From: a virus
Direction: 5' to 3' (one strand)
DNA length: 46,167 nt
IMG/VR virus record: IMGVR_UViG_3300025759_000163
Location: 1-46,167 of that record
Shown: positions 12,809 to 44,394 of the stretch, one piece after another
Numbering within the stretch: the first letter of the stretch is position 1
Layout of the letters: each line of letters starts with the position of its first letter
Made by a program: the position numbers and the translations under genes
The notes under the pieces: generated by a model
Told to the model about the DNA's origin: nothing
Seen by the model: the letters and a program-made list of their open reading frames with translations, nothing else
Database searches by the model: none

Positions 12809-13907
12809 AAGTTTAAATTTATCTGGTGGTTACGACCCGATGAGGTCTGTTGATAGAGAAAGCTATGCAGATAAAGTAAGGAAGACTAGTCAAATGGTAT
12901 TGTCTCAAGCTATGGGTCAATATCAAATGAAACAAGCTCAGCAAAATATAGAAAACCAGCAAACTATGAGAAGGGCTGATGAATATTTTGGTGAAAATAT
13001 GAATAAATTTATGTCTAGTTCTGCTAATATAAAAGACCCTAAAAGCTGGAGTTTTAATACTGGAGAAACAAGAGAAAGAGCTTTTAATGATTACAGAGAT
13101 AAGGTAGGCGGTAATTACTCAGCTTTTAACCAAGCTTGGTCTCAAAAGCAAAACGCTGAATCTCAAGCTTTAATTAGGAGTCTTGGAGAATGGAGAAAAG
13201 AAGTTGGTGATGATGATGAATTTAAAAATATGTATAGTGAATGGTTTGATAACTTACCAGAAACAACTAGAAATAATTTAATGTCTAATGCCAATCAGGA
13301 ATTGTATACAAATTTAAGTTCTTATTATAAACCAGAAAAAGATAGGCAAGGTTTATTGGAAAAATATGTGAAGCCTGTAGGTTATGGAGCCTCCGCACTT
13401 TTTTCACCTGCAATATATCGTGGATTAAAAACGAAACTTGGCTTTGGACCTAAAACTCCCGAAGGTATAAAAAACGAAGCAGGAGAGATAAAAAATAAAA
13501 GAAAGTCTAAGGGTAAAAAAGTAAAAACATCAGGAGCAAAAGTTACCTCTCAAGATATTTATAAAGGTGAAGGTAAGAAAGTAAATATAAGAGAGTTAAT
13601 GAATAGAAGCTCTAAAGTAGGTGGTACTGAAGAAAAGAATTTTATAAATAAAGTTAAACAAAATTTTTCTAAAGCCGCGACTGGTAAAAATAGTAAAAAT
13701 TTTATGAAAAGATTAATAAAAATCACAAATAATCCTACTGTTAAAAAGAAATTAACTAAGGTAGCCGCTAAAGGAGCCGCTAAAGCTACTGCTTCCGGAG
13801 CAACTGGCGTTGGTGCTCCATTAAGTGTTATATTTGGATTGTTAACAGTAAAGGAAATATATGATTTGTACAATGACCCTGAAATACAAAGCATGTTAGA
13901 TGGCTAG
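12795..13907 (+). CDS. Probable internal virion protein with hydrophobic C-terminus
   Basis: 370 residues. The first ~110 are Gln-rich and helical; residues ~225-310 are strongly basic; the C-terminal ~60 are Ala/Gly-rich and hydrophobic (KGAAKATASGATGVG, then a VIFGLLTV segment), so they may contact membrane. Overlaps the previous gene by 14 bases and the giant gene by 8. Composition and place suggest an ejected core protein that helps DNA or protein cross the envelope. No family recognised. Confidence 0.6.
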   Translation: MSEVKSLNLSGGYDPMRSVDRESYADKVRKTSQMVLSQAMGQYQMKQAQQNIENQQTMRRADEYFGENMNKFMSSSANIKDPKSWSFNTGETRERAFNDYRDKVGGNYSAFNQAWSQKQNAESQALIRSLGEWRKEVGDDDEFKNMYSEWFDNLPETTRNNLMSNANQELYTNLSSYYKPEKDRQGLLEKYVKPVGYGASALFSPAIYRGLKTKLGFGPKTPEGIKNEAGEIKNKRKSKGKKVKTSGAKVTSQDIYKGEGKKVNIRELMNRSSKVGGTEEKNFINKVKQNFSKAATGKNSKNFMKRLIKITNNPTVKKKLTKVAAKGAAKATASGATGVGAPLSVIFGLLTVKEIYDLYNDPEIQSMLDG

Positions 13908-16900: not shown

Positions 16901-19900
16901 ATGACCATTATAGAAATACAACAGAAGAATCTGAATATAGTAGGGATGAATTATCAGAAGAAAGAATTAGCTTAGTAGAATATAATACTATAGTAGAAAG
17001 GTTAGCGTCTCTATACCCTAAAGGTAGTACTGGTGGATTGATGCATAAATTCATTAGAGACTTTAGAATGGTAGCTTTAAAAAACTATGCTGTACATAGT
17101 GCAACTAGACCTAAGTTAAAAGGTAGTGCTGTAGCTCGTATTAGACCTTGGGATGAAGGTATGAAAAGCACTATGGACGATATAAATAATGATAGTAACA
17201 AAGTATTCTATCTTGATAATGGTCATAAGAAAATACTTTTATATGATTCTAGATTTAAAAATGGTGAAGCTACTCTAGAAGAAGTGTTTAATATGTCTAA
17301 GGATAAAAATTTAAACAAGGATGATATAGAAGATTATAAAGAGATGATTCGGGGTGTATTAACAAGAGTTCCTATGGATAGTATGAGTGGCGCAAATGTT
17401 CTTAGGCTGGGTGGTTTTACTGGGATAGATGGTTATGGAGTGTTAATGCACCCTAGAGTTATGAGGGCTCTTGGTGGTGCTGATTTAGACGGTGATAAAG
17501 CATTTATATTTTTTGGTGGTGAAGGCGGTATGAAGCCTGAATATAAAAAAATGTATGAAGAAGCTAGGGATGAATTTTTTGATAAAAAAAGAGAAATGCA
17601 TAATAAAGATGAAAAGGATAAACTTAACCCTAAAAAAACAGTTAGAGAATTATTTACCGTAAGTGATAAAGATTATCTAGATAAAGCTAGTAATAATGCT
17701 AATTATTATAATCCTATATGGCGTAAAGCGATGAGCGATGGAGCAAGTTCTGGTAGGGATGTACTTGGAACTGCTGTTAATACACGTAGTGCTATATTAG
17801 GGGCTTATAATGCTATCACAAATATGGTCAGCAAAGTAAATAAAGTAGAGTTATTTAGATTAATGGAGGATGGTAGTAGGGGTAAATCTATAATAAAAAA
17901 AGATGAAAAAGGCAATATAAGTTATATATTAAATTATAAATCAAGTTACAATAGAAAAGATGGTTCAGTAGGTTATTTTTTTAAAAGAATAATTATGGAT
18001 TTAAAGCCCGAAAATATGGATATATTCAAACAGAGGTCTAGAGCTGCAATAGCTATAGGTTCTGACCCTATGGATGAAGCTGGAGTAAAATCTGCAAGCG
18101 ATTTTAAACAAATAATGTTAGAGCCTCTATTTGATATTAAGCAAGAAGTTTATAAAAAAGGTAAGTATGTACCTGATAAATATAGTCAAAACTCAATAAA
18201 TATATTGCCTAAAACTCTTATAGGGGATTTTTTAAGTGTTAATTCAGCTTTATATGGAAAAAATAGCGCTACTGGCTTAAGGTATACTTATTCTGATATT
18301 AAATCAATAATTTCTAAATTAACAAAATTACCAAAAAGTGCAGAAAATAACGTGATGGTAAATTTAGCTAAAGATATTAATGATATTAATTGGAGTGATA
18401 ATTTATTTAGAAAAGTAGACAGAAGAGCTTTAGGACAAATGTATCAAGAACATAGAGATAATCTTGATAAATTTGAATGGTTAAAACCTATATTAAATAG
18501 AACTACTTTTGCTGTAAAGCCTAGTAGGATTGCTGAGTATGTTTTTGGTAAAAATATGTGGAGTGATATTCACTTAAAAAAATACTTAGAAAACGACGAA
18601 GCTTGGGCAGACTTATTTTTAAATAGCCCTAAAGATAGATATAACGAACTAGATGTTCCTTATAATTTAAAAGCAAATACTACTTATAAAAGAACTTTAG
18701 AATCAGATATGAAGGAAGAGGATATAGTTAAAGCTATTAGCCCTGAATGGAGAAGTTCTTGGATAGACTATATGGTTTTAAAGTCTGAAGATTTTTTAGT
18801 AAACGATATGAGCGATATTACGACGATAAATAGAATTGTAGATATTGTTAAAGAAGGTAATATTAATCCAGCTAGGATAGATGAAATTTTTAAAAGAGCA
18901 GAATATATAAAGAACCAAAGCTATCATAAGATGCAAAATAGAAAATCTCAAGTTGATAAATTGGAGTTTGACTTTATAGGACACAATGAAAGAACTATAA
19001 ATGATATTTCTGATTTTAAAACTAGTACTGATAAAGTTAGTGCTGGAGCTGATAATGTTCTTATTGATATAATGATAAAAGATTTTATTAAGGATAAAGA
19101 ATTAAATACTAAAGAAAAAGAACTTTTTGACACAATGCTGATGGGAAGTTTAACTAGAGGTGATTTAAAAAAAGAACAAACCTTAAAGAAAAATATAAGG
19201 AAATTAAAAAGAGGTAGAAATTGGGGTGGTAAAAAAGCTCAATATCAAGAAGCATTGTTAAAAGATTTACAAAAAGACGCTGAAAGCACATCATTAATGA
19301 AGGTGGGATTAAATAGCAAAATAGTAAGTAATGAAAATATAAAAAAATACTTTGATGAATATGAAAAACTATTTAAAAAGTCATCTACTAAACTTACAGA
19401 TGAAGAAATAAAAACAATTGAAGAATCATTGCTTCCTGATAAAGGTTCAGATAAGATAGTAAATTTATTAACTGCTAATGGTAAAAGAGTTGAAGGAAGT
19501 ATACTTGAGCAATCTGATTTAGATAAAGCTCAACGTAGATTTTTAGATGAATTAGACCCTTTTTTAAATTTAGGTAAAGCTGATATTAAAGACCCTGAGA
19601 TAAATGAATTGTACCTTGATTTAAAAAGACATTTAGATAATATGCATAATGTAGATGCTAAAAACATTAACTGGTTATTTAGAACTGTTGCTGGTAAAAA
19701 TATAAACCTAGCTAATAAAATTGATTTAGAAGCTTTTAGAAATTATTTAGATGATATGAATACCCCTAGTTTTTGGAGAAGAAGTTGGGATTATATTACT
19801 GGTAAAAACCCAACCGAAATAAAAAGAGCTTATTATATGCAGTTTCCTGCTACAGTAGATAAAGACTTAGCCACTAGCCCTGCATTTAGACAATTACAAG

Positions 19901-22530
19901 AAAGTATTAGCCCTTATAAAGATAGACTTGGTAATACTATTATGGGTAAAAATTTAACACCTATTACACCTATGGGTTTAATACAGCAATTTAGCGCAAA
20001 AGCTACTGAAGTATCACAACAAGTTATACAAAATGAAAAAAGTGAACTTAGGGATAAGTTGTTACCTTATCTTGACGGGATAGAAAATGGTAGAGATTTA
20101 TATGACATAGCTGTTGCTATGAGAGAAAAAACAATAGCAAATAAAAGATTTAAAAATGATAAAATATTTCTTTCTGAATATATAGAAAATTGGAATGAAG
20201 TAAAGCCTCTATGGAACAAATTAAAGAATCAAACTTATAGAGTCCCTTTAAAAACTGGTGTACAAATTATGAAAGGTTCTGATGTTGTAAATAATATAAA
20301 TAACATTATTACAATACAGAATCAAAAAGTACATCAATGGTTAACTGGTGACGGTAAATCTGCTAATAGATTTTTAGATATGGCTAGAGATAAACAAGGA
20401 AGGGTTACCTACGGTGGTTTAGTTATTTTAAGAAGAGCTTGGAATAAAGAAGTTGCTAAACTATTAAAAGACGGAAAACCTATTCCTATAGAAAAATATG
20501 GAATAGACGGTATAAGGTTAATTAGTAAACATATTGTTCAAAGTCATATACCTTTAAAATTAATTAAAGAAGGTGGTTGGAAAAAATTAAAAGAAATAAA
20601 TAAAAAACTTGATTTTCAAATGTCAGAGTATACTGGTAAATATGATTATAGCGAATATTTCCCTCATATAGGATTAGATAAAAAGAAAGCTAAGGAAAGG
20701 TATGAGTATGCTATAAAAACTTTAAACGAAAGAGATTTGACAAAGAAAGAAAAAGACGTAGAGATTAAAAAAATATTTACTCAATATAAAAAATTGACTG
20801 GTGATTATATGTCAAAAGATATGATGGGTGAAAATTATGATAAAGTAGAAGATATTATTACAGCAGTTGCACAAAATAATAAAAAATACGCTAATAATAT
20901 ATTGAGTAATGAACTTGTTAAAGTGGGAAGTCAATTTAGTAGAGAAAGTCATATTGGTGGGTGGTCTAGAACTCCAGAAGCTTACGATGCGTATATGAAG
21001 AATATAATAGATACATTTTACAGACAGGCTATGCAAACTGCAAACAGGTCTACTATACACGAGTTTGGTGAAAAGTTTTTCCGAAAAACCAAGGATGCTA
21101 AATTAACTACAGCTTGGAGAAGATTTTTTAGCTTATATGCTAATCAAGCTATGGGTTATCCTAGCCATATACCTCAGCAAGTTATGGATGACCCTCTTAT
21201 GAAGTTAAGTTATACTCCTTATAAGTTTATGTCTGATAGTCAAACTAAAAAAAGAGTTGATTTTATAAGAAAAAAACTAAATATAGATAGAAAACAATTA
21301 AAAGAATTTGATTTAAGTGAAGATGTTATAGATGAAATGACTGGAGTTAGCTATGCTCAATTAGAAAGTATGAGTGCTGTAGAAGCTAAATGGCAGTTAG
21401 CATCTCTACTTGCCCACCCTAAGAGTGCTGTAGCTAACTTTTATGGTGGTAGTGTGCATACTGTTATTAATACTGGTTGGAGTACTTTTAAAAACGCTAG
21501 AAGTATTGAGTATTTAAAAGCTAAAGTAAATTCTAAATGGAATAGTATGTCTGATGTAGAAGACTGGTTGCAAAAACTAGGTGTTACTGAAGACTTTTTA
21601 CAATACGAAGTTGGTTTAAATCCTAATCAAAAAGATAGTAATCTAGCTAAAATGGCTAATGATGTTGGTAACAGGTTAAAAGTTGGTAAGAAAGTAGGTC
21701 CTAAAGAGTTATTAGAGATAAAGAATAAATATAATCTTAGTGCTAGTGCTTTTAAATTTGCTAGTTCTTTTATGAGAGTACCTGAAAGAGCCTTAAGGCG
21801 AGATGCTTTTATGGCTCACTACCTACAAGCTAGAGAAAGATTTGGTAATGCTATTAAAGACCACGACCATCCATTCTTAATAGAAATGGCTAAGAAAGGT
21901 GTTAAAGCTACTCAGTTTCTATATTCAGCTCCATATAGACCAGCTTGGACAACAAGTGCTATGGGTAAAATATTTTCTAGATTCCAGTTATGGAGTTGGA
22001 ACTCTGTAAGATTTAGAAGAGATATACTTAAAAGAGCTAAGATATATGGCTTTGTTCCGGGTACAGAAGCACACGATAACGCTATAAGAATGATGCAAGC
22101 AGACGCTTTTATGTTAGGTATGGCTAGTGTTTATACATATTCCTTGTTTGAATCGGCATTACCTGCACCATATAACTGGTTACAAGATACAGCAGATTAC
22201 TTTTTTGGTGATGAAAAAACTAAAGATAGAGCATTTTTTGGTAGTCCTCTTGGACCATTTCAATTAATAACTCCACCATTTTTAAGAGCTATGCCACAAT
22301 TATTTAAATGGATGGTTAATAAAGACCAAGAGATTATGACTGAATATGTAGCTTGGAGTTTATTCCCTTTCGGTAGAATAGGTAGAGATATATTAGGTAA
22401 AGGTGGTATTATAGAGAATCCATATTATGCTGTAAATAAAATGACTGGATTACCATTAATTGATGTAGCTGGAGATTTAAAACCTATATTTCCTTATTTA
22501 GGCAATAAGAAGGAGCAAGAAGATGCTTAA
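13900..22530 (+). CDS. Giant virion protein with double-psi beta-barrel RNA polymerase signature
   Basis: 2876 residues. The key motif is ADLDGD, with Asp1195, Asp1197 and Asp1199 matching the metal-binding DxDGD of multisubunit and YonO/QDE-1-type RNA polymerases. As in beta-prime, it is preceded by R1156-x-P1158 and MHP (His1184-Pro1185). Upstream, residues ~800-865 (conserved-looking Lys828 and Lys844 in an LLGKYM context, then LPESAVKQMG) have the look of the first, lysine-bearing barrel. Residues before ~330 and after ~2300 resemble injected polyvalent proteins, with a hydrophobic C-terminal region. By analogy with the crAss-like virion polymerase (phi14:2 gp66), I infer a single-chain polymerase packaged in the head and injected to transcribe early genes. 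The remaining domains are unassigned. Confidence 0.75.
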   Translation: MARLTPEGWQPSAERKQISDAVYQYTINPTNFQDDSSLDDLELHASHYGIPFARSKEHQDSLISRTLGEVGKGFAEGITANLWKGEPPAPSDNVAKIARQLGSVAGFMGYIPGRKYLPILSKVKNLSLPMYASTKATKAVGKAINPLIKQTNKEVKDFLTGSVISDVVQGGFQMGVASAVSGEWKDGVGTILKNAGYGSLYGGVARGIGNMKGFGKRITVDQLDKSTGAPKLSKLADGQKIDLSMRVLANGTFDALSAKMQGQTTPEQVYNFIMGGFLGWRDLPLSTRTSQEFIWKTLRDKTIEDPELHPDWENYTPEMHEIIKKDMDFYFGPQEARGVVAKLLENKGIISEEEFYKSIGKQLGADFEKGPDGVPIKKLTNKDVEEYVKDYTDNGATKDLDDLDMHISDVRDLVGKGQPVVNWVSSHLKPKNEFEKIGMSADLFAQWKRYFEQGEDGVKPKDNAENEMYRYINGKFGIKLNDEGKGWWRRFAEEQRKRIFVPQLTVVDGVASFLSGNINAVGNKKDVHFQRPIIGDVLYSQYPETVGKDFFTYLDHIIYNGKEYTIRGAEKGIFRDLLQKAENERKGPLEGEEIGLIQEQSKSIFKSNIDAVNERLDKEGYYYVGGKGDKDAMYFVQKHPFIANKKNKDGKGTLQVLKALYQHSKANGFTKKPNVESFIKELELDTQYLKDSVASNVLYDMTWNGFKIADQLKSGDVRTTTLIKDLLSVMKNSGKFLNSAKAYNKRAQIWFNTGISSNADNVSKLIKSVPVVNGNLKIKIFDDDKKGNLVGRGDTQTEFTDGAILGLKDVIKALNIDKGMPTDGNVNKSFIVSPDESYGALLGKYMIHEPSKATSDKMKKEGVHLLLPESAVKQMGFRKFDTVYDLPIEHIRTTMSEITSSKYIKPQRLPKQMMTVLSAVDGNNSDLFKQMYEDFSGASKNGTEQGRNILEKFKLDPAKNEKDLIDNYDEIPISQLFDIIRNPNYESASAGLMQKILKIQDDHYRNTTEESEYSRDELSEERISLVEYNTIVERLASLYPKGSTGGLMHKFIRDFRMVALKNYAVHSATRPKLKGSAVARIRPWDEGMKSTMDDINNDSNKVFYLDNGHKKILLYDSRFKNGEATLEEVFNMSKDKNLNKDDIEDYKEMIRGVLTRVPMDSMSGANVLRLGGFTGIDGYGVLMHPRVMRALGGADLDGDKAFIFFGGEGGMKPEYKKMYEEARDEFFDKKREMHNKDEKDKLNPKKTVRELFTVSDKDYLDKASNNANYYNPIWRKAMSDGASSGRDVLGTAVNTRSAILGAYNAITNMVSKVNKVELFRLMEDGSRGKSIIKKDEKGNISYILNYKSSYNRKDGSVGYFFKRIIMDLKPENMDIFKQRSRAAIAIGSDPMDEAGVKSASDFKQIMLEPLFDIKQEVYKKGKYVPDKYSQNSINILPKTLIGDFLSVNSALYGKNSATGLRYTYSDIKSIISKLTKLPKSAENNVMVNLAKDINDINWSDNLFRKVDRRALGQMYQEHRDNLDKFEWLKPILNRTTFAVKPSRIAEYVFGKNMWSDIHLKKYLENDEAWADLFLNSPKDRYNELDVPYNLKANTTYKRTLESDMKEEDIVKAISPEWRSSWIDYMVLKSEDFLVNDMSDITTINRIVDIVKEGNINPARIDEIFKRAEYIKNQSYHKMQNRKSQVDKLEFDFIGHNERTINDISDFKTSTDKVSAGADNVLIDIMIKDFIKDKELNTKEKELFDTMLMGSLTRGDLKKEQTLKKNIRKLKRGRNWGGKKAQYQEALLKDLQKDAESTSLMKVGLNSKIVSNENIKKYFDEYEKLFKKSSTKLTDEEIKTIEESLLPDKGSDKIVNLLTANGKRVEGSILEQSDLDKAQRRFLDELDPFLNLGKADIKDPEINELYLDLKRHLDNMHNVDAKNINWLFRTVAGKNINLANKIDLEAFRNYLDDMNTPSFWRRSWDYITGKNPTEIKRAYYMQFPATVDKDLATSPAFRQLQESISPYKDRLGNTIMGKNLTPITPMGLIQQFSAKATEVSQQVIQNEKSELRDKLLPYLDGIENGRDLYDIAVAMREKTIANKRFKNDKIFLSEYIENWNEVKPLWNKLKNQTYRVPLKTGVQIMKGSDVVNNINNIITIQNQKVHQWLTGDGKSANRFLDMARDKQGRVTYGGLVILRRAWNKEVAKLLKDGKPIPIEKYGIDGIRLISKHIVQSHIPLKLIKEGGWKKLKEINKKLDFQMSEYTGKYDYSEYFPHIGLDKKKAKERYEYAIKTLNERDLTKKEKDVEIKKIFTQYKKLTGDYMSKDMMGENYDKVEDIITAVAQNNKKYANNILSNELVKVGSQFSRESHIGGWSRTPEAYDAYMKNIIDTFYRQAMQTANRSTIHEFGEKFFRKTKDAKLTTAWRRFFSLYANQAMGYPSHIPQQVMDDPLMKLSYTPYKFMSDSQTKKRVDFIRKKLNIDRKQLKEFDLSEDVIDEMTGVSYAQLESMSAVEAKWQLASLLAHPKSAVANFYGGSVHTVINTGWSTFKNARSIEYLKAKVNSKWNSMSDVEDWLQKLGVTEDFLQYEVGLNPNQKDSNLAKMANDVGNRLKVGKKVGPKELLEIKNKYNLSASAFKFASSFMRVPERALRRDAFMAHYLQARERFGNAIKDHDHPFLIEMAKKGVKATQFLYSAPYRPAWTTSAMGKIFSRFQLWSWNSVRFRRDILKRAKIYGFVPGTEAHDNAIRMMQADAFMLGMASVYTYSLFESALPAPYNWLQDTADYFFGDEKTKDRAFFGSPLGPFQLITPPFLRAMPQLFKWMVNKDQEIMTEYVAWSLFPFGRIGRDILGKGGIIENPYYAVNKMTGLPLIDVAGDLKPIFPYLGNKKEQEDA

Positions 22531-25205: not shown

Positions 25206-26981
25206 TTAACCTACCTTTGGTAATCTAAATGACGGAGTCCAGTTTAAATTTACATTAAACAAATCACCATCACTGTTTTTAAATAAAGATACTTCTTTAG
25301 CTGTATTATCCTGTCTACCATTAATACCTATAACTTTTCTTGATGCATTCTCTATAGCACCTGAACCTTTACCAGCATATATGTCTAATATTTCATTTCT
25401 ACTATAATCTCTTGATACTTGTGAGATTTGTATAATAATTATATCCATATTTACAGCAAGGTTTGATAGGTAATGAGATATATATCTTACTTGTTCATAT
25501 TCTCCACGTAAATGTGGTGGACATTCTAGTAAATCTATATAGTCTATTACAACTACTGAAGGTTGCATTTCTTTAATCTTCTTAGCTATTGCTTCTGGTT
25601 GTGTTGCTATTGTTTGTATTGTAAGATGTTGTAATTGAGATGCGTAATCTACACCTATTTGATGAACATCTTCATTAACAGCGTCTTTATTTAAGCCTGA
25701 TACTATTTGAAGATTCCTTCTATGCATATAATGACCTGACAATTCTAAACTTAAAAACAATGTAGGTAACTGCCATTCTGGAGTTATAACATCATCTTTA
25801 AAATCATATCCTAAAACTATATTTTGTGCCAATGTTGTTTTATTACTACCTGTTGGACCGAATATAGTTACTAATTCACCCGGATATATTGTACAGTCTT
25901 TATCTTTTAAGCCGAAACTTTTAGCTAAATCTATACTTTTACCAGTGTAATCAGTAGATAATCTCTCTTCTAATTGTTCTTGTAATTGTTCTCGTGTATG
26001 TACATCAACAAGATAGTCTTTATGTTTATAATACACACACTTTGGGTCACAATATTCTGACATTATAGAGTCTTTACAACCATATTGGTATCCGTGATTG
26101 TATGTAGCCTCTACTTTATCTATTACTATTTGTGGGTTTAACTGATTATTATTCCAATGTAACAAACTTGCTTTAGTAGCGTCACTTGGAATGCCGTGTC
26201 TTCTAAAATGACTAGCCATTCTTAATAATGTGTTATTTCTATTACCTTGAGTAGGACCTTTTTTATACATTGTTTGAACACAAGGTACTACATTCCTTGG
26301 TTCTTGTACTGCTTGCATAGCCCTTACTTCAGGAACTTCTTTTTTCACATATTGTTCTAAGCTACCATCTCCTGTAAGTGTTGATATTGCTGAATTTAAC
26401 TCTCTAGTTTGAGCTTTACTTAATATCTGTTCAGGTTTTAGAGTGTTTAATTCCATAGAAGTCAATGGTATTTTATACAAACTACTTTTTGTATTAAATG
26501 AATGCGGTGAACGTATTATTGCTGACTTTGTATATACACTTAAATCTATTTTATAATCAATTAAGTCTTTCATAGTTTGTTTAAGTATATAAGGTAAGTC
26601 TTGGCTAGGTTCAATGTTAAAGCATTTACCTGATATATTTATATGATAACCTGTACCACTAAAATATACTTGGTAGTTCTCTTCCTTTAAACCAAGTTCC
26701 TGTAATTCAAATAAAACAAATTGAGCTTGTTGTTGTGTGTATTCATCTGTTTGTTGGCCTCTATCAATATCAATAGGTATTTCATCTATATATCTTTTAC
26801 CAACAAAGTTTTTAATACTACCACTTTTATTAATGAACTTTATAGCCTCTTCGTCGTATAGAAAAACACTTCTATACATAGCTATTCCCGGAGATTGTTC
26901 ATATAATATATCCCAATAGTCTTCTACAGAAACGAGAGTCCCCCTTGATGAGGGACTCCCGATTGCTATTTCAACATACAT
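25206..26981 (-). CDS. Primase-helicase fusion: archaeo-eukaryotic-type primase plus RecA-fold helicase
   Basis: 591 residues. Residues ~35-185 carry the archaeo-eukaryotic primase motifs: D71-x-D73, S108-G-T-G-Y-H113, and D146 followed by R157-S-P-H160. Residues ~230-320 hold four Cys (234, 302, 311, 315) around a GNRNN...LLHWNNN...GC segment, a PriCT/PriL-like module that may bind metal or an iron-sulphur cluster. Residues ~345-591 are a DnaB/RecA ATPase with Walker A GPTGSNKT (375-382), Glu413 and Walker B VVVID (Asp480). One chain would make primers and unwind DNA at the fork. Start overlaps the SSB-like stop as TAATG. Confidence 0.85.
   Translation of the reverse strand: MYVEIAIGSPSSRGTLVSVEDYWDILYEQSPGIAMYRSVFLYDEEAIKFINKSGSIKNFVGKRYIDEIPIDIDRGQQTDEYTQQQAQFVLFELQELGLKEENYQVYFSGTGYHINISGKCFNIEPSQDLPYILKQTMKDLIDYKIDLSVYTKSAIIRSPHSFNTKSSLYKIPLTSMELNTLKPEQILSKAQTRELNSAISTLTGDGSLEQYVKKEVPEVRAMQAVQEPRNVVPCVQTMYKKGPTQGNRNNTLLRMASHFRRHGIPSDATKASLLHWNNNQLNPQIVIDKVEATYNHGYQYGCKDSIMSEYCDPKCVYYKHKDYLVDVHTREQLQEQLEERLSTDYTGKSIDLAKSFGLKDKDCTIYPGELVTIFGPTGSNKTTLAQNIVLGYDFKDDVITPEWQLPTLFLSLELSGHYMHRRNLQIVSGLNKDAVNEDVHQIGVDYASQLQHLTIQTIATQPEAIAKKIKEMQPSVVVIDYIDLLECPPHLRGEYEQVRYISHYLSNLAVNMDIIIIQISQVSRDYSRNEILDIYAGKGSGAIENASRKVIGINGRQDNTAKEVSLFKNSDGDLFNVNLNWTPSFRLPKVG
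26936..26958 (-). promoter_or_regulatory. Stable hairpin inside the first codons of the primase-helicase gene
   Basis: In the minus-strand RNA, GAGUCCCUC pairs with GGGGGACUC (9 bp, one G-U) around an AUCAA loop, about 23 bases after the start codon. It stands out in this AT-rich genome. It may slow translation or mark a processing site; no U-tract follows, so it is not a standard terminator. Confidence 0.6.
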
Positions 26982-27565
26982 TAAAATGGTGCTGAATCTG
27001 AATTAGATGTGACAGTCGGTACTACATTACCTGTCTCTGTCACTTCCTTGATAAGATTCTTAGACTTTAAGAAGTTTACATAACCTTCAAAGTCTTTTTC
27101 ATCAGTACCTAGTTTAGGATATACTTTAGTATATGTTTTATCGCCTATCTTAGCTTTTTCTTTATATGCATAAGCATAAAAAGTTTTATTAGCTAATTGA
27201 GATAAATGATTATCGTGTAGATGCTTTTCAAAGTTAGCTATTTCTACACCATTCTCATCTACTAATTTACCAGTTTTATCTGGACCACCCTTAAACCCTA
27301 TAGCGTCAAAGAATCCATAAGCTCTTCTTAATAAAGTACAGCTTTTAATATCTCCATTAGGTTCTTTATCGTATGAGCCTAATATTGACATTGTGTAAGG
27401 ATACTGTGAATTTGGTGATGTTAGTGTTACGTCGATAAACATATCAGCCCAATCAAACTCATCAGTTCTATCATTGAAGTTTGCTATTGTTACTGGTATA
27501 ATACCTAAGTAATTACCACTACCTGTAGATGAATCTATATCATCTGGTCTAAAACGTTCGGACAT
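26981..27565 (-). CDS. SSB-like single-stranded DNA-binding protein
   Basis: 194 residues. A central beta-rich segment with FDAIGFKGG and FYAYAYKEK, and a flexible Asn/Ser end finishing in DSAPF, resemble phage single-strand binding proteins whose acidic-phenylalanine tip contacts partners. It lies directly after the Sak4-like ATPase, a pairing seen in many phage recombination modules. TAATG couplings link it to both neighbours, and AAGGAGG precedes it. The fold is inferred from context and tip. Confidence 0.6.
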   Translation of the reverse strand: MSERFRPDDIDSSTGSGNYLGIIPVTIANFNDRTDEFDWADMFIDVTLTSPNSQYPYTMSILGSYDKEPNGDIKSCTLLRRAYGFFDAIGFKGGPDKTGKLVDENGVEIANFEKHLHDNHLSQLANKTFYAYAYKEKAKIGDKTYTKVYPKLGTDEKDFEGYVNFLKSKNLIKEVTETGNVVPTVTSNSDSAPF

Positions 27566-28425
27566 TAGTCCTCCTTTTTGTATGTTAGTATTTCGTTTCT
27601 TACACTCTCGTAATTAAACGGGAGTCTTTTTTGTGCAAGTGGCTTAAGCCTGCTACCTACTACTCTCTCATCGTAAGCTTCAAAAGATATGTAATACTTA
27701 CCACCATCTTTATCTGCTGTACAATAGCCTATAACATCAGCTTTAGCGGCTAGACTATAACCTAGTCCTCTCGGTAATTCAGGACCTAGTTGAGCTTTAC
27801 CATCTGTAACTGTTGTAGTTTTACTATGACTAATTAAGATAAGGTTTGCACCCATCTTTTTAGTTAAGGTTTGGAATCTCTTGATAACATCTAGATTTTT
27901 ACGTCTAGCTTTTCCCCAATCAGAACCCCAAGAACCTTCGCCCATAGCAGTTATTCCTAGTTCTTGTAGAACTATTGTTTCTACCCATTCATTAACTTGT
28001 CCTATAGTATCTATAACTATAGTATCGTAAGGTAGATTATCCCATTCTTTTGCAAGCCATTGATAAACTTCTATCATGCTATACACAGGCATAGGTTTAC
28101 CTGTATCTTTACCTGTTCTAAACCTAAAACCTCTTTCTTCTGGAGGCACTACTTCAAACTGAGGCTTACCGCCTTTGACGACTTGTTTACCGTCACTCTT
28201 TAGTTCTCTCATAGGTGGGTTTAGTTCGGTTACTGTAACTACATTAGCTTTATCTGTAAAATCAGAGCCAAGGTCAGTGTCAATAATTAACACTCCCTCA
28301 GCTCCTTTTTCACTCCAAGAGCTAGTTGCAGTTGTTTTACCTGTTTTCGGTTGACCAATGAAGAAGTACGTCAGTCCCGAGGGCATTATCCCCCAGTCCG
28401 TCTGTACTTTGCGTACTTTTATCAT
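27565..28425 (-). CDS. Sak4-like RecA-fold ATPase
   Basis: 286 residues. Walker A GQPKTGKT (24-31) comes straight after a short leader ending in PSGLTYFFI, and Walker B is TIVIDT (Asp139), followed by LILISHSK. This is the compact RecA core of the Sak4 family, which promotes single-strand annealing with an SSB partner. It overlaps the E1 gene end by 89 bases; the start at 28425 is supported by AAAGGAAATAG. Confidence 0.8.
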   Translation of the reverse strand: MIKVRKVQTDWGIMPSGLTYFFIGQPKTGKTTATSSWSEKGAEGVLIIDTDLGSDFTDKANVVTVTELNPPMRELKSDGKQVVKGGKPQFEVVPPEERGFRFRTGKDTGKPMPVYSMIEVYQWLAKEWDNLPYDTIVIDTIGQVNEWVETIVLQELGITAMGEGSWGSDWGKARRKNLDVIKRFQTLTKKMGANLILISHSKTTTVTDGKAQLGPELPRGLGYSLAAKADVIGYCTADKDGGKYYISFEAYDERVVGSRLKPLAQKRLPFNYESVRNEILTYKKED

Positions 28426-29119
28426 CTATTTCCTTTTGTTTTATTGTTGGTACTATTAATGTCCCATAATGGATATTTATTGGACTCAAGCTGGACCAAA
28501 TATAATCATAATAAGACAAATTTGCAACTAAAGAATGTACTTGACTGGCTACAAGACTTGCTACATTTGTTGTGGCAAATACTGTATGTTTCATTGAACA
28601 AGGTGCTTTAGGAACTGAATCTGTAGGAACCCAATGCTCTTGATAATTTTGTTTTATAACACCTTTACAAGTAACTATTTCTACATTAGTAGCACCCATA
28701 CGAGCATCTATAAACCAAGAGTCTTTATTTTTTCTACCTTCATCTTCCCACCACATTCTATAAGCCATTCTTCTAGATTCCATATCATCTGTACATACAA
28801 TCATTTTACTAGTTACTTTTGAGGAATAATCAAATTTCTTATTAAATGCTAAAAATTCTTGATTATCTGTAACTCTATTAAAAAGATTTTGAGCACATTC
28901 TGTTTTAGGTTTACCTACATCATCAAAGGAATATGCAGTGCTTGATAAGTTATGTGATTCCATTCTATCATTATCAAAGCCTCGTATAGATTTGAATCCC
29001 ATAATTCCTAAAGTTTGAACTAAAAATGAACCTATACCTCCTAAACCTACTATTGTAACTTTGTCTAGTTTATCTATGCTAATAAGGTCTTTATTTCTTA
29101 AGAATCTTGTATCATTCAT
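28337..29119 (-). CDS. E1/ThiF-like ubiquitin-activating enzyme
   Basis: 260 residues. The Rossmann nucleotide-binding loop VGLGGIGS (24-31), Asp49-Asn50-Asp51, Asn57, Lys70 and the VCTDD segment (Asp111/Asp112) are the adenylation residues of the E1/ThiF/MoeB superfamily. ARMGA (139-143) follows as in family members. Cys174 (APCSMKHT) is the best candidate for a thioester cysteine. The enzyme would adenylate the C-terminus of the small Ubl encoded at 32111-32335. It is compact, lacking the large extra domains of eukaryotic E1. It is fourth of the four-part conjugation cassette. Confidence 0.88.
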   Translation of the reverse strand: MNDTRFLRNKDLISIDKLDKVTIVGLGGIGSFLVQTLGIMGFKSIRGFDNDRMESHNLSSTAYSFDDVGKPKTECAQNLFNRVTDNQEFLAFNKKFDYSSKVTSKMIVCTDDMESRRMAYRMWWEDEGRKNKDSWFIDARMGATNVEIVTCKGVIKQNYQEHWVPTDSVPKAPCSMKHTVFATTNVASLVASQVHSLVANLSYYDYIWSSLSPINIHYGTLIVPTIKQKEIDDKSTQSTDGLGDNALGTDVLLHWSTENR

Positions 29120-29348
29120 TATGATGTATCTCCTTTTTTAAAAGTTTTATTTGGTTTTGTATTTCTCTCATTGCTTCATATCTACCCAATAAATATGCAA
29201 CATGTTCTCCTGAATCTATCTTAGTATCAGTAAGATATTTAATGTTGTAAGTATCTTCTAACTCATAATCAACATCCCATATTATATTATTTACTAGAGT
29301 AGTTACTCTTTCAAGAGCTTCTTGAGCTCTAAATTTACTCAACTTCAC
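29112..29348 (-). CDS. 78-residue helical protein between JAB and E1
   Basis: GTG start with AAAGAGG 7 bases upstream; ends overlapping the E1 start by 8 bases. Mostly helical and charged. No family recognised. Placement inside the conjugation cassette suggests an accessory factor or substrate adaptor. Its ribosome site can pair with a hairpin loop just upstream. Confidence 0.65.
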   Translation of the reverse strand: MKLSKFRAQEALERVTTLVNNIIWDVDYELEDTYNIKYLTDTKIDSGEHVAYLLGRYEAMREIQNQIKLLKKEIHHNE

Positions 29349-29369
29349 TTATAACCTCTTTTTATAAAG

Positions 29370-29413
29370 CCCCTAGACACCAAAGAGGAGATGACTTGAG
29401 AAGTGCCTAGGGG
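29370..29413 (-). promoter_or_regulatory. Intergenic RNA hairpin upstream of the 78-residue gene, loop complementary to its ribosome site
   Basis: In the minus-strand RNA, CCCCUAGGCAC (29413-29403) pairs with GUGUCUAGGGG (29380-29370), 11 bp with one G-U. The 22-base loop contains CCUCUUU, an exact complement of AAAGAGG, the ribosome site before the GTG at 29348. The stem could help stop upstream transcripts or protect them, and the loop could hide the ribosome site as a pseudoknot. Confidence 0.6.
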
Positions 29414-29419
29414 ACTTTG

Positions 29420-30292
29420 TTATATTCCTATTTTATTAATACTATTCTCCTTATAGTATTCTCTAATTACTGTTGTTGCGTCTAGATTTTTATCTATAGC
29501 TTCTAAATCTAGTTTAAACCGTCTAAAGTCAGAACTAATAATGTAAGCATCTATAGCGTTAAGAATTAAATCTTCGTTATCTATATCTTCAACAATATTA
29601 GCACTTAAAGCTTTAGTAGCTGGAGAAGCATTAAACATACTTCTTTGATTTACGTTATATCCATCGTAGTATCTATAACCGTAATTAGCCCAACTATTTT
29701 TAGTTTCTTTCTTTGCCTTTGCTTTTATAGTATTAGCTTCTTCTTTCCATTGCTTATCTACAACAATCTTTCTCATAGGTTTAACTACTTTACCTTCTAT
29801 GAAATGACCAATACCTAATCTATCTCTGTAACTAAAGCCAAAAACACATTTCTTTTTCTCACTTGCTACTACTGTACTGAAATACAAACCAGTATTTGTA
29901 GCATTTTCTAGAGCTGTATCTTTGTCAGTTCCACTGAAGAAAGCACCTAATGTATGATGACTATGTATTAAACCTAAAGCACAGTCTTTCAACTCTGGCT
30001 TTTGTTTGTATAATTTGTATAGCATCTTTCCTAGTTCTTCTCCGTCTAACTCTGTACTTGTAGAATCGCCTAAGTCAATAGGTACAAAATACAATAGAGT
30101 TACTTTTAATGGAAAATCATCTTGTTTCTTATCTACTTTGTAGAATGCTGGACCTGACCATTCTGTATTAGGAAATGTTCGCAGTAAATAAATTATTTTG
30201 TCTTTCATTTCCAAGTCTATCGAGAGATGAGACTCTAGATTCTTCTCTTCGATGTTTTTCTCTTTTTTCTTGTGCTTTTCTTGATATTTCAT
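29420..30292 (-). CDS. JAB/JAMM metallopeptidase (deubiquitinase-like)
   Basis: About 290 residues from ATG at 30292, chosen because AAAGGAG lies 6 bases upstream; in-frame ATGs at 30337 and 30208 lack a good site. The zinc motif is complete: Glu44 in TEWSG, His110-x-His112 in IHSHH, Ser120 and Asp123 in SGTD. JAMM enzymes cut isopeptide bonds at ubiquitin-like tags or trim the tag precursor. With Ubl, E2 and E1 in the same operon, it is likely the tag processor or remover. It overlaps the E2-like gene by 125 bases, an unusually long shared stretch. The C-terminal ~130 residues are unassigned. Confidence 0.87.
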   Translation of the reverse strand: MKYQEKHKKKEKNIEEKNLESHLSIDLEMKDKIIYLLRTFPNTEWSGPAFYKVDKKQDDFPLKVTLLYFVPIDLGDSTSTELDGEELGKMLYKLYKQKPELKDCALGLIHSHHTLGAFFSGTDKDTALENATNTGLYFSTVVASEKKKCVFGFSYRDRLGIGHFIEGKVVKPMRKIVVDKQWKEEANTIKAKAKKETKNSWANYGYRYYDGYNVNQRSMFNASPATKALSANIVEDIDNEDLILNAIDAYIISSDFRRFKLDLEAIDKNLDATTVIREYYKENSINKIGI

Positions 30293-32006
30293 CCTGTTCT
30301 CCTTTGAATTTAGATAATGTGTTATTAATATATTCACTAAATGATAATGCCATATCGTTCTTTACTGCAAGTACTTGATTCTTTGTTAATTTAGCATTAG
30401 CAATCCAATCGAATATTTTAACTGCTGGTTTTTTACTATAAAGAATTTGATAACCACTAGCAACTCTATTATGCTTTATTTTTAAATTATCAATTTCTTT
30501 GGCTTCTATTAACTCAGATATATTAACTTTATAACCAAGTAAGTTAAGTATATGAATACTTATCAGACACCATCCTAATCCATATTGCAGAATACTTCTA
30601 TTCTTTATTGACATTATATCTACAAAAGAACTATTAATTGTATTTTGCAGTATTTTAGTTTCATCAATTTTAAATAACTCTTGAATGTATTCTTGACGAA
30701 TTATACCTATATTACCCACATAATAAGTTATATTTACCATTCTATCGTTTTCGAAATTTTCAATATCTCTAACAAGAGTATCTATATTACAATTTGCATT
30801 TCTATAGATGTTTAATAAAACCCATCCAAATTTATAATTATCTGTCAATTCTGTAGAAACATTAATTGAAACATTTTTTTTAGATAATGATAAATTTATA
30901 TCATTTAGTAATTCAGGATTAGTAATAGAACTTCCATCATTTTGTAAGTTTCTCTTATCAATGGTACGAAACCCTAAATGACGAGAATGTAGTGTACCGT
31001 CTCCCCAAGAACCTCCATTTTTAGGTAAATTCAACCAATCTAGTATAAATAATTTATTTATTCTATGTCGAAGCGTTTGATTTGAAAATATACCATTATA
31101 AATTGATGAAGAACTTTGTTCAGCAGTAATATTAGCAAAATTCAAGCGAGGTAATAATAATTCCTCAAATTTCTTGTTGATACTTTCGAAATCTGATTTA
31201 TTATAATTTTCGTGCAACCAAGTATATAATACAAGCAATGATTCAGCAAATTGATAATATGGTTGGTGTTTACCTTCTTTTAATCTTGCTATATATATAT
31301 TTGTATGGCTTTCTCTTCCTATGAAATCAATATTTGAAAACATTACATTTTGTGGTAGTACTTTTGACTTTTTAGCTTGAAGAGTTCTATTCCACATTAA
31401 CCAACTAGCATAATCTTTAATACCTTCTTTGAATTTCTTCTTTACACTTTGAAGAGCAGGATTTTCTCCAAAAGCCTCATCATACATTAAATTCACTTGT
31501 GTATAATGGCGACGCCAAGATGTCCAAAGACTATTAATATCCCAATATGCATCATTACGAGTCCAAGTGTTTAAGAAAACACCAGCATACCTTGCTATAT
31601 CTTTTACAGTGCTATTCTGCACTGTATAAAACATTAGAGTTTCGTGCTGACCTAAACAAGGAATGCCATCTCCACTAATATGTGGATGTAATGTGCAATT
31701 TTCACTCGATTCATTAACAAACTTAGTACTGAGCAAAGCTCCTCTTTTACTAAATTTTATTTCAAGATTAATTTTAGGCATAATGTACTTTCTAGCACCT
31801 TGTAATCTTGGTCTTTTTGGTAAATTAATATACATTATGTAATTATCTTGAGCTTTTACTTTAGTAATTAATCCTAAAGATTCTTCATCAACTTGATTAA
31901 CTGTCTCATTAGGATTGTCAGTCTGGTATTCTTCTCGAGCTCTTAATTGAGCTTTGTAAAACATTGATAATACTTTAGATATTACTTTTTTACTTTTTAA
32001 AAACAT
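30168..32006 (-). CDS. E2-like conjugating enzyme with long C-terminal extension
   Basis: 612 residues. Residues ~50-165 match the E2/UBC core: a beta meander, then HPHISGDGIPCLG (107-119), equivalent to the HPN...G-x-I-C-L catalytic segment, with Cys117 as the expected thioester cysteine. After it a tryptophan-rich helix (DINSLWTSW) follows. Residues ~190-570 have no recognised domain and the last ~45 are Lys/Arg/Glu rich. An E2 normally has ~150 residues, so this is a fusion that may carry a ligase-like or substrate-binding part. A clear AAAGGAG site sets the start; the upstream hairpin loop can pair with it. Confidence 0.78.
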   Translation of the reverse strand: MFLKSKKVISKVLSMFYKAQLRAREEYQTDNPNETVNQVDEESLGLITKVKAQDNYIMYINLPKRPRLQGARKYIMPKINLEIKFSKRGALLSTKFVNESSENCTLHPHISGDGIPCLGQHETLMFYTVQNSTVKDIARYAGVFLNTWTRNDAYWDINSLWTSWRRHYTQVNLMYDEAFGENPALQSVKKKFKEGIKDYASWLMWNRTLQAKKSKVLPQNVMFSNIDFIGRESHTNIYIARLKEGKHQPYYQFAESLLVLYTWLHENYNKSDFESINKKFEELLLPRLNFANITAEQSSSSIYNGIFSNQTLRHRINKLFILDWLNLPKNGGSWGDGTLHSRHLGFRTIDKRNLQNDGSSITNPELLNDINLSLSKKNVSINVSTELTDNYKFGWVLLNIYRNANCNIDTLVRDIENFENDRMVNITYYVGNIGIIRQEYIQELFKIDETKILQNTINSSFVDIMSIKNRSILQYGLGWCLISIHILNLLGYKVNISELIEAKEIDNLKIKHNRVASGYQILYSKKPAVKIFDWIANAKLTKNQVLAVKNDMALSFSEYINNTLSKFKGEQDEISRKAQEKREKHRREESRVSSLDRLGNERQNNLFTANIS

Positions 32007-32025
32007 ATAATTCTCCTTTATTAAA

Positions 32026-32094
32026 GTGAGAGCACCGGTCTTTACTTGTAGCTTATAGGAATAGACTCTTTCAATAAAAGCCCAGCACTCTCAC
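32026..32094 (-). promoter_or_regulatory. Intergenic RNA hairpin between Ubl and E2 genes, loop complementary to the E2 ribosome site
   Basis: In the minus-strand RNA, GUGAGAGUGCUGG (32094-32082) pairs along its full 13 bases with CCGGUGCUCUCAC (32038-32026), including three G-U pairs, which favours this strand. Loop bases 32080-32070 can pair over 11 bp (two G-U) with 32025-32015, which includes the first bases of the AAAGGAG site. It may let Ubl be made in excess over E2, by partial termination, processing or translation block. Confidence 0.6.
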
Positions 32095-32110
32095 CGTTTA
32101 ATCAAGTAGC

Positions 32111-32335
32111 TTAGCTACCTGAAGTTACTTTACTCTGGCTAAAATGTACGAAATCACCATCGCTAAGAGGTGTGTTCATTTCAGCTTTATTACCATTTAC
32201 CATAATAACAACATTGCTTACACTCAAGTTACGCATTTCAGCAATAGTCGCAGGTGTTAAACCCGGTCCTTCTACTGATTGCACTGAACTATTAGCTTGT
32301 ACTGTTACTTTGATTGTATTAGGTGTTCTTCCCAT
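32111..32335 (-). CDS. Ubiquitin-like protein (ThiS/MoaD-type beta-grasp)
   Basis: 74 residues with a strong AAGGAG site. The beta-grasp pattern is clear: IKVTVQA first strand, a helix around TPATIAEMRN, VVIMVNG (Asn47-Gly48) and LSDGDFVHF (Asp59-Gly-Asp61), then a flexible end in TSGS. ThiS, MoaD and ubiquitin end in Gly-Gly; this one ends Ser-Gly-Ser, so removal of one residue by the JAB peptidase would expose a C-terminal glycine for E1 activation. It is the first gene of the Ubl-E2-JAB-E1 cassette. Conjugation targets are unknown. Confidence 0.82.
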   Translation of the reverse strand: MGRTPNTIKVTVQANSSVQSVEGPGLTPATIAEMRNLSVSNVVIMVNGNKAEMNTPLSDGDFVHFSQSKVTSGS

Positions 32336-32336
32336 A

Positions 32337-32450
32337 CTATTCTCCTTGTTTTAAGGTTGTTGTTTTAAAAATTCTTTCTAATCTTGACAGTCTACGATAT
32401 ACATTAGACAGTAAAGCTCTTCTTATTCTTTTCTTTATGGATTCATACAT
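32337..32450 (-). CDS. 37-residue Arg/Lys-rich peptide
   Basis: Read directly: ATG at 32450 lies within the end of the zinc-finger gene (8-base overlap), TAG ends at 32337 one base before the Ubl start. Strongly basic and amphipathic helical (KKRIRRALL...YRRLSRLERI). The tight packing suggests it is translated; it could be a nucleic-acid binding or membrane-active peptide. Confidence 0.45.
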   Translation of the reverse strand: MYESIKKRIRRALLSNVYRRLSRLERIFKTTTLKQGE

Positions 32451-32658
32451 TATGTCTCTCATTTTCACCTGTTTTACTCATTAATACATCATTATATTCA
32501 TCAGGCATATAAATATAAGTGCAATCTTCACAATAAGAACCTATTGATGAAGTAGATACTGGTTCATCTATAAATTCTTCTATTAACATTTCTTGACCAC
32601 AACAGGGGCAATCTACCCCTGCTGGGTCTCCGCCAATCGGCATAACTGGAATACTCAT
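32443..32658 (-). CDS. Small zinc-binding protein
   Basis: 71 residues. C17-x2-C20 and C43-x2-C46 form a zinc ribbon; the first pair is in the CPCCG-E form common in rubredoxin-like knuckles. It precedes the Ubl gene. Its start overlaps the previous stop as ATGA with only a weak site. It could be a cofactor for the conjugation cassette or a host-takeover protein. Confidence 0.65.
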   Translation of the reverse strand: MSIPVMPIGGDPAGVDCPCCGQEMLIEEFIDEPVSTSSIGSYCEDCTYIYMPDEYNDVLMSKTGENERHNV

Positions 32659-44255: not shown

Positions 44256-44394
44256 ACTAAGTGCTGATGATTTATTTATCATCAAACAATCTATAGAGGA
44301 AATCACTGTTAAAGGCAAAGACGCTATGAGAATTGGTAAGCTATTAGTTAAAGTGGAAAATGCTTTTGTAAAAGAAGCGGAGAAATCTAAATAA
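44245..44394 (+). CDS. 49-residue helical protein with TTG start
   Basis: Read directly: TTG at 44245 with AAGG 6 bases upstream, overlapping the previous gene by 11 bases; TAA overlaps the large fibre ATG as TAATG. Helical and charged (SADDLFIIKQSIEEITVKG). The coupling to the fibre supports it. No family recognised. Confidence 0.55.
   Translation: MKLELSADDLFIIKQSIEEITVKGKDAMRIGKLLVKVENAFVKEAEKSK

What the first reader, a model, noticed from the sequence alone, without database searches (positions are those of the whole stretch)
28337..32335. Complete ubiquitin-like conjugation cassette in a phage early operon
Seen: a beta-grasp Ubl, an E2-like protein with HPHI...PCLG, a JAMM peptidase with full HxH...SxxD motif, and an E1/ThiF enzyme with GxGGIG and the adenylation residues. 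They lie in the order Ubl-E2-JAB-E1, with one extra small gene between JAB and E1. Known: bacterial Bil defence cassettes use the same four parts and order and tag phage tail proteins; PRTRC elements have a related set. Inference: here the phage itself owns the machinery and runs it early, next to its replication genes. It may counter a host Bil-type system, modify host proteins, or tag its own proteins.
Basis: partly seen in the sequence, partly recalled or inferred. Interest (0 to 1): 0.95.

Follow-up and report, generated by a model that had tools for sequence, protein, structure and literature searches.

The report
Phage-encoded ubiquitin-like protein-tagging cassette
A bacterial virus known from metagenomes, and many relatives including common human-gut phages, carries its own complete set of genes for attaching a small ubiquitin-like tag to proteins, placed among its DNA-replication genes, which points to a little-explored way in which phages may control proteins in infected cells.

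Summary
The four-part cassette is real and conserved. On the minus strand the window encodes, in order, a beta-grasp Ubl, an E2-like protein fused to a ~400-residue helical tail, a JAMM/JAB peptidase and a single-domain ThiF/E1, directly ahead of Sak4, an unnamed gene and DnaB/primase. All four occur together in every one of 25 distinct related viral contigs with enough DNA. The Ubl ends KVTSG plus 0-4 variable residues, a likely JAB processing site. The E2 carries HPH-x7-C-L with canonical spacing; its best PDB match is UBE2W, the E2 that tags N-termini. E1 and JAB homologues, in the same gene order, lie in the replication region of crAss-like phages (crAss001 gp79-76), annotated as thiamine, metalloprotease or hypothetical proteins. 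It is not Bil, PRTRC or CBASS by the tests made here. Most likely it is a working Ubl-conjugation cascade used in the replication phase. The E2 tail diverges to near-random identity while its neighbours stay ~80% identical, so I favour variable, probably host, targets. Targets and activity are untested. New variant of a known kind.

The parts
32443..32658 (-). 71-aa zinc-ribbon protein (CxxC...CxxC, 'GGD' N-terminus) just upstream of the Ubl; candidate accessory part, role unknown
   Evidence: Profile hit in 32 of 33 loci with upstream DNA; alignment with four conserved Cys. No family assignment over cut-off.
32111..32335 (-). Ubl, 74 aa, beta-grasp, C-terminus ...KVTSG-S; predicted conjugating residue Gly73
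   Evidence: Weak Pfam ThiS and MoaD_arch 5.8e-4 below cut-off; AlphaFold pLDDT 81, strand-strand-helix-strand-strand; Foldseek PDB hits ThiS-like Mth1743 (TM 0.72), SUMO, MoaD, archaeal Ub; invariant KVTSG. SD AAGGAG.
30168..32006 (-). E2-like protein, 612 aa: UBC-type core ~41-175 with H107-P-H109...C117-L-G, then a ~400-aa helical, fast-evolving tail
   Evidence: Conserved motif; core profile finds UBE2W as its two best PDB hits, E 0.06-0.07; model has a 4-strand meander, active loop, helices; structure hits a crAss phage protein in the E2 slot and a marseillevirus E2 with E 0.08-0.11.
29420..30292 (-). JAB/JAMM isopeptidase, 290 aa (revised start ATG at 30292)
   Evidence: Pfam Prok-JAB 1.5e-5 over cut-off; complete JAMM motif invariant; SD and start analysis.
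29112..29348 (-). 78-aa gene between JAB and E1; not a conserved part of the cassette
   Evidence: Relatives only in the L001/L003 group and weakly L095; a ~145-aa gene fills the slot in most relatives.
28337..29119 (-). Single-domain E1 (ThiF/MoeB-like), 260 aa, catalytic Cys174 candidate (APC174SMKH)
   Evidence: Pfam ThiF 1.5e-15; invariant nucleotide-binding residues and C174; PDB matches NEDD8 E1, UBA5, MccB, ThiF, Cap2.
27565..28425 (-). Sak4-like recombinase; overlaps the E1 gene; conserved downstream neighbour
   Evidence: phrog_124 6.5e-27; next to E1 in all near-clade loci that reach it.
26981..27565 (-). 194-aa conserved replication-module protein, possibly single-strand DNA-binding (inference)
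   Evidence: Conserved between Sak4 and DnaB; no family hit.
25206..26981 (-). DnaB-like helicase/primase
   Evidence: Pfam DnaB_C 8e-15, PriCT_1 1e-5; phrog_19 3e-26.

Best explanation
The phage encodes a self-contained, reversible ubiquitin-like conjugation cascade. Inferred steps: JAB trims the Ubl precursor after ...KVTSG; the E1 adenylates the C-terminal glycine and loads it on Cys174; the Ubl passes to E2 Cys117; the E2 transfers it to an amine on target proteins; JAB can remove it. The long helical tail of the E2 is the likeliest target-recognition module, since no E3 is encoded apart from, possibly, the small zinc-ribbon protein. The genes sit in one operon with replication genes, so the cascade should act in the replication phase. 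My working hypothesis for its role (about 40%) is tagging of variable host proteins, such as defence or takeover targets. Gene content, motifs, the Ubl fold and conservation are shown here; the E2 fold is likely but not proven; catalysis, targets and role are inferred.
For: All four parts in 33/33 loci (25 contigs). Catalytic motifs conserved or invariant. Ubl C-termini are KVTSG+0-4 residues in the near clade, and KVKSGK, KVESGS, NKSGIVS, NNKVGG, NKTGG, NTGGAA in more distant DnaB-linked phages: constant up to Gly and variable after it, the signature of a processed modifier. crAss-like Ubls mostly have KKIKSG followed by 2 or ~140 extra residues. The E2 core keeps the UBC active-site layout: H-to-C distance 10 in 67/73, Trp at C+8 in 24/39, and UBE2W is the best PDB match. 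Order Ubl-E2-JAB-E1, with E2/JAB overlap in most, recurs in crAss-like phages and Flavobacterium phage FpV4. Where DnaB pairs are 80-99% identical, median identity is E1 75%, Ubl 82%, Sak4 84%, but E2 tail 24% (shuffled baseline 19%).
Against: No activity has been measured. The E2 fold is not statistically proven: Foldseek E 0.07-0.26 on a low-confidence model, no Pfam E2 hit in any of 31 members. The Arg73 position of MoeB is not conserved. dN/dS of the E2 tail is ~0.2 in close pairs with raised dS, so its divergence reflects relaxed constraint and/or recombination, not demonstrated positive selection. The operon location would equally suit phage replication proteins as targets.
Confidence: 0.72

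Rival explanations
1. The cascade modifies the phage's own replication/recombination proteins (Sak4, the 194-aa protein, DnaB), comparable in logic to SUMO or ubiquitin on eukaryotic PCNA.
For: Constant placement beside replication genes in the window family, in crAss-like phages between primase and UDG, in FpV4, and beside topoisomerase/ligase genes in a Xanthomonas jumbo phage. crAss001 replication genes are middle-expressed (PMC8375218).
Against: Sak4 and DnaB are ~84% identical where the E2 tail is 24% identical; a tail that recognises them should be conserved. Five relatives with the same Sak4-194aa-DnaB block lack the cassette next to it.
Confidence: 0.25
2. Specific counter-defence: the cassette interferes with host ubiquitin-like immunity (Bil, Bub, type II CBASS), e.g. 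by removing or mimicking tags.
For: Part and order match with Bil; JAB could remove host tags; cassette is dispensable in one subclade.
Against: The Ubl, E2 and JAB show no recognisable kinship to BilA/B/C; deconjugation alone would need only the JAB, whereas all four genes are kept. Host and its defences unknown.
Confidence: 0.12
3. A sulfur-carrier (ThiS/MoaD/Urm1-type) pathway for thiolating RNA, DNA or a cofactor.
For: E1 is ThiF-like, Ubl is ThiS/MoaD-like; Ubl+E1+JAB sets occur in sulfur metabolism (PMC1779556).
Against: A conserved E2-like protein with an invariant Cys is always present; no rhodanese or sulfurtransferase was assigned in this operon; Ubl ends in SG, not GG, in this clade.
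Confidence: 0.1
4. Virion or tail protein tagging/processing, as proposed for lambda TAPI/TAPK.
For: JAB and Ubl pairs occur in lambdoid tail clusters (PMC1779556); Bil interferes with phage assembly (Hor 2024, title cited in PMC13373217).
Against: Cassette lies on the opposite strand from the structural genes and in replication modules in other phages.
Confidence: 0.06

Closest known systems
Uncharacterised ThiF/metalloprotease genes of crAss-like phages (crAss001 gp79-gp76; DAC15, cr106_1, Kolpuevirus, bajarodcaudo) and Flavobacterium phage FpV4 gp53-gp50
   Same: Ubl-E2-JAB-E1 order, E2/JAB overlap in most, E1 and JAB homologous (E ~1e-25 to 1e-30 and ~1e-16 to 1e-21), K[IV]xSG Ubl motif in most, in the replication region
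   Different: E2 is HSH...C[LTI]G with marginal profile similarity (hhalign 9e-4); Ubl similarity not demonstrable by sequence; Ubl usually has a long C-terminal extension; crAss001 E1 has a ~150-aa N-terminal extension
Bil (bacterial ISG15-like) antiphage operon
   Same: Same four functions and gene order (L163)
   Different: Carried by phage not host; single Ubl domain not two; E1 is 260 aa with one domain, not 453 aa; E2 is HPH..C not the BilB CEHH arrangement (PMC11354881); no profile kinship except the generic E1 fold
PRTRC cassette of plasmids/integrative elements
   Same: ThiF, JAB and E2-like parts; nearer E1 than BilD in the profile test; PRTRC_B has ENGSVCMG reminiscent of DGxPCLG
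   Different: E1 scores 32 bits against a 145-bit cut-off; E2 match not significant; no PRTRC model over cut-off in the proteins scanned
UBE2W (eukaryotic N-terminal ubiquitinating E2)
   Same: HPH in place of HPN, same spacing to Cys, often Trp at C+8 in the phage family
   Different: E-value only 0.06; phage E2 has a 400-aa tail; the window E2 has Met at C+8; N-terminal specificity not tested
Lambda-type TAPI (Ubl) and TAPK (JAB+NlpC)
   Same: Phage-encoded Ubl plus JAB (PMC1779556)
   Different: Tail cluster, no E1 or E2 described there
Type II CBASS Cap2/Cap3 and Bub operons
   Same: E1/E2/JAB-type chemistry in prokaryotes; E1 profile reaches Cap2
   Different: Cap2 is an E1-E2 fusion with a non-Ubl substrate (PMC12355090); here all are separate genes in a phage; PADLOC E1-E2 hits cover only part of the adenylation domain. 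Bub components were not available for a direct test

Membership tests
Ubiquitin-like conjugation systems (general) | beta-grasp modifier with conserved C-terminal Gly | tested here: met
   Model and Foldseek; invariant KVTSG
Ubiquitin-like conjugation systems (general) | E1 adenylating enzyme with ATP site and Cys | tested here: met
   ThiF 1.5e-15, invariant GxGGIGS, K72, D111, C174; Arg73 position not conserved
Ubiquitin-like conjugation systems (general) | E2 with UBC fold and catalytic Cys | tested here: inconclusive
   Active-site signature and spacing met; fold supported but not significant
Ubiquitin-like conjugation systems (general) | JAMM isopeptidase | tested here: met
   Complete invariant JAMM motif, Prok-JAB over cut-off
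Ubiquitin-like conjugation systems (general) | Covalent protein-Ubl adducts | not testable with these tools
   Needs biochemistry
Bil | Ubl-E2-JAB-E1 order | tested here: met
Bil | BilA with two Ubl domains | tested here: not met
   74 aa, single domain
Bil | BilD E1 with inactive plus active adenylation domains (~450 aa) | tested here: not met
   260 aa; BilD not among the PADLOC hits listed; 4.7 bits
Bil | BilB CEHH active site | tested here: not met
   HPH precedes the Cys; no E2-profile hit to BilB
PRTRC | ThiF and JAB proteins passing PRTRC models | tested here: not met
   PRTRC_ThiF 32.4 vs 144.75 bits, PRTRC_A 13.8 vs 101.8
PRTRC | ParB/ParM-type partner genes | tested here: not met
   None among the Pfam-scanned cassette neighbours; the rest of the genome was not scanned with Pfam
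Type II CBASS | CD-NTase substrate and E1-E2 fusion | tested here: not met
   E1 and E2 are separate genes; 6A-MBL cap2_3 34.8 vs 320 bits; no nucleotidyltransferase among scanned neighbours
Sulfur-carrier (ThiS/MoaD) pathways | Ubl ending in GG, sulfurtransferase partner, no E2 | tested here: not met
   SG ending, E2 always present, no sulfurtransferase assigned
UBE2W family | HPH motif with Cys 10 residues after the first His | tested here: met
UBE2W family | Transfer to N-terminal alpha-amino groups | not testable with these tools
   Needs biochemistry

The most novel reading that the evidence does not exclude
Tailed phages of several unrelated groups, including crAss-like phages common in human guts, share an ancient replication-phase ubiquitin-like tagging system. 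Its HPH-type E2 attaches the tag to protein N-termini, and a fast-evolving E2 tail picks host targets. This would be a viral ubiquitin system in bacteria that mirrors, rather than merely evades, host ubiquitin-like immunity.
Probability: 0.2. Interest if true: 0.93.

Novelty: new variant of a known kind. Interest (0 to 1): 0.82.

Why it matters
Ubiquitin-like conjugation in bacteria is known mainly as host antiphage defence. Phages that carry the full set of enzymes reverse that picture and add a natural source of compact E1/E2/JAB systems. The crAss001 and DAC15 versions sit in culturable phages but are labelled 'thiamine biosynthesis', 'metalloprotease' or 'hypothetical', so the function can be tested at once. 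I found no description of such a system in the papers held; most subscription papers and all preprints were not searchable, so priority is not established.

Tried and rejected
1) A beta-clamp-like QLSxF tail at the E2 C-terminus of relatives: it lies in the stretch that overlaps the conserved start of the JAB gene, so it may be a by-product of overprinting; not claimed. 2) Positive selection on the E2 tail: dN/dS ~0.2, not supported. 3) Kinship of E2 and Ubl with crAss proteins by sequence: Ubl not detectable, E2 marginal. 4) E2 against Pfam, NCBIfam, PADLOC: nothing. 5) Full-length E2 profile against PDB sequences: only helical noise; the trimmed core worked. 6) Promoter scan: no excess over shuffles, so no promoter claim. 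8) Several E1 hits in phage records (Salmonella, Escherichia) look like host thiF-type genes and were set aside.

Full report
What is there. The window is a whole virus record of 46,167 bases with tailed-phage genes on the plus strand (terminase, portal, major head protein, tail fibre) and a minus-strand replication block (HNH endonuclease, Mu Gam-like protein, DnaB/primase, a 194-aa protein, Sak4). Directly upstream of Sak4, in the same orientation and closely spaced, lie E1, a 78-aa gene, JAB, E2, Ubl and a zinc-ribbon gene. Shine-Dalgarno sequences precede Ubl, E2, E1, Sak4 and the 194-aa gene; they also place the JAB start at 30292, not 30337.

Conservation. A scan with the E1 found 59 viral loci. 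All 33 loci with enough upstream DNA, from 25 distinct contigs, have Ubl, E2, JAB and Sak4, and 32 have the zinc ribbon. Catalytic residues are conserved in alignments of E1, E2, Ubl C-terminus and JAB. A DnaB-anchored scan shows the cassette beside Sak4 in nearly all relatives whose contigs reach it. It is missing beside Sak4 in five (L129, L131, L132, L134, L152), of which two were read in full and have a different gene set before Sak4 (only these stretches were seen). So the cassette is common but not obligatory.

The modifier. The Ubl models as a beta-grasp fold (pLDDT 81) and matches ThiS-like Mth1743, SUMO, MoaD and archaeal ubiquitin. Its end is KVTSG, constant in the near clade, followed by nothing or up to four variable residues; more distant relatives end KVKSGK, KVESGS, NKSGIVS, NNKVGG or NKTGG. 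crAss-like Ubls carry mostly K[IV]xSG followed by a short or ~140-residue extension. Constancy up to the Gly and variability after it is what a processed modifier should show. Cleavage by the JAB is inferred.

The E2. Residues 107-119 read HPHISGDGIPCLG. The distance from the first His to Cys is 10 in 67 of 73 proteins, and Trp stands at Cys+8 in 24 of 39 distinct cores (not in the window, which has Met). A 26-sequence core profile against 177,635 PDB sequences returns UBE2W as its two best hits at E 0.06-0.07. HPH instead of HPN is described as unique to the UBE2W family, whose Cys93 and Trp101 are spaced alike (PMC4630614), and UBE2W tags protein N-termini (PMC8322077). The AlphaFold model is confident only for about residues 41-216, which show a four-strand meander, the active loop and helices. 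Structure search gives Cdc34 (E 0.26), and among viral models a marseillevirus E2 (E 0.08) and the 435-aa crAss phage cr128_1 protein that by length and origin corresponds to the E2 slot (E 0.11, probability 0.92). None is significant alone; together with the motif they make a UBC fold likely. More distant DnaB-linked phages have mostly HP(Y/F)...C with an invariant Cys.

The E1. It is a one-domain ThiF-type enzyme; the PDB profile search reaches NEDD8 E1, UBA5, MccB, ThiF, MoeB and Cap2. No curated model of PRTRC, CBASS or Bil claims it. In a 46-row tree it lies in a virus-only clade with DnaB-linked relatives (98/97), apart from crAss, jumbo-phage, PRTRC and Bil sequences, whose deep order is unresolved because of long branches.

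Wider spread. Named phages with an E1 relative include crAss001, DAC15, cr106_1, cr128_1, cr85_1, Kolpuevirus, bajarodcaudo virus and FpV4. In each region examined, Ubl, E2, JAB and E1 follow one another by gene order and size, in crAss-like phages after primase and before uracil-DNA glycosylase where these are annotated. Xanthomonas jumbo phage PhiXhv-12 has a Ubl-like protein ending ASGG, an HPH..LCLG protein with a Cys-rich tail, and an E1 beside topoisomerase genes, but no JAB in the stretch seen. A Verrucomicrobia-binned contig, L080, also has all four.

How it probably works. Trimming, activation, thioester transfer and conjugation follow from the parts. Target choice is the open point. 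Where DnaB pairs are 80-99% identical the E2 tail is 24% identical, near the shuffled baseline of 19%, whereas E1, Ubl and Sak4 are 75-84%. If the tail picks targets, those targets vary between close relatives, which suits host proteins better than the conserved phage replication proteins. dN/dS near 0.2 with raised dS shows no positive selection and hints at recombination, so this is an inference, not proof. The HPH motif raises, but does not show, N-terminal conjugation.

Known or new. Bil shares the four functions and order (L163) but fails on Ubl domain number, E1 architecture, E2 active site and sequence kinship. PRTRC is nearer than Bil on E1 but far below model cut-offs. Lambda-type TAPI/TAPK clusters have Ubl and JAB only. 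Text searches of the held library found no description of a phage-encoded E1-E2-JAB-Ubl set; the two main crAss papers checked do not mention ubiquitin or ThiF. I rate it a new variant of a known kind, widespread and directly testable in cultured crAss-like phages.

Noticed in passing
L073 4238-8648 (crAss001 gp79-gp76); L154-L158: In crAss-like phages the same four-part cassette is annotated as hypothetical, metalloprotease and 'thiamine biosynthesis protein ThiF', probably a misannotation in many public records.
   Followed up: yes
window 30168-30292: E2 and JAB genes overlap by 125 nt; overlaps of about 60-125 nt recur in crAss-like phages and FpV4, suggesting translational coupling. The conserved E2 tail of relatives (QLSxxF) may be overprinting of the JAB N-terminal helix.
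   Followed up: partly
L007 6564-7001 and most near relatives: A ~145-aa protein starting MMTVPQKKYF..RIDEI fills the JAB-E1 gap in most relatives but is absent from the window; function unknown.
   Followed up: partly
L075 and L159 (Xanthomonas PhiXhv-12, Erwinia Ep032): Jumbo phages of two host genera carry nearly identical E1 genes; in PhiXhv-12 it follows an E2-like protein with a Cys-rich tail, beside topoisomerase and ligase genes; no JAB seen.
   Followed up: partly
L078, L079 (Patescibacteria / Ryanbacteria contigs): Cellular-looking neighbourhoods with a JAB and a similar compact E1 and, upstream, a possible E2; a candidate host-side cousin.
   Followed up: partly
window 1-3 / 44394-46167: The tail-fibre ORF at the right end continues in frame into the ORF at the left end (junction codon GTT), so the record may be a complete circularly permuted genome although no terminal repeat was found.
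   Followed up: partly
window 13900-22530: A 2,876-aa plus-strand ORF among the structural genes was not identified.
   Followed up: no
L119, L126, L127, L133, L136, L147, L153: Same Sak4-194aa-DnaB block preceded by a distinct Ubl cassette type (Ubl ending VGG or TGG, E2 mostly HP-Y/F...C), as if cassette types were exchanged at one site.
   Followed up: partly
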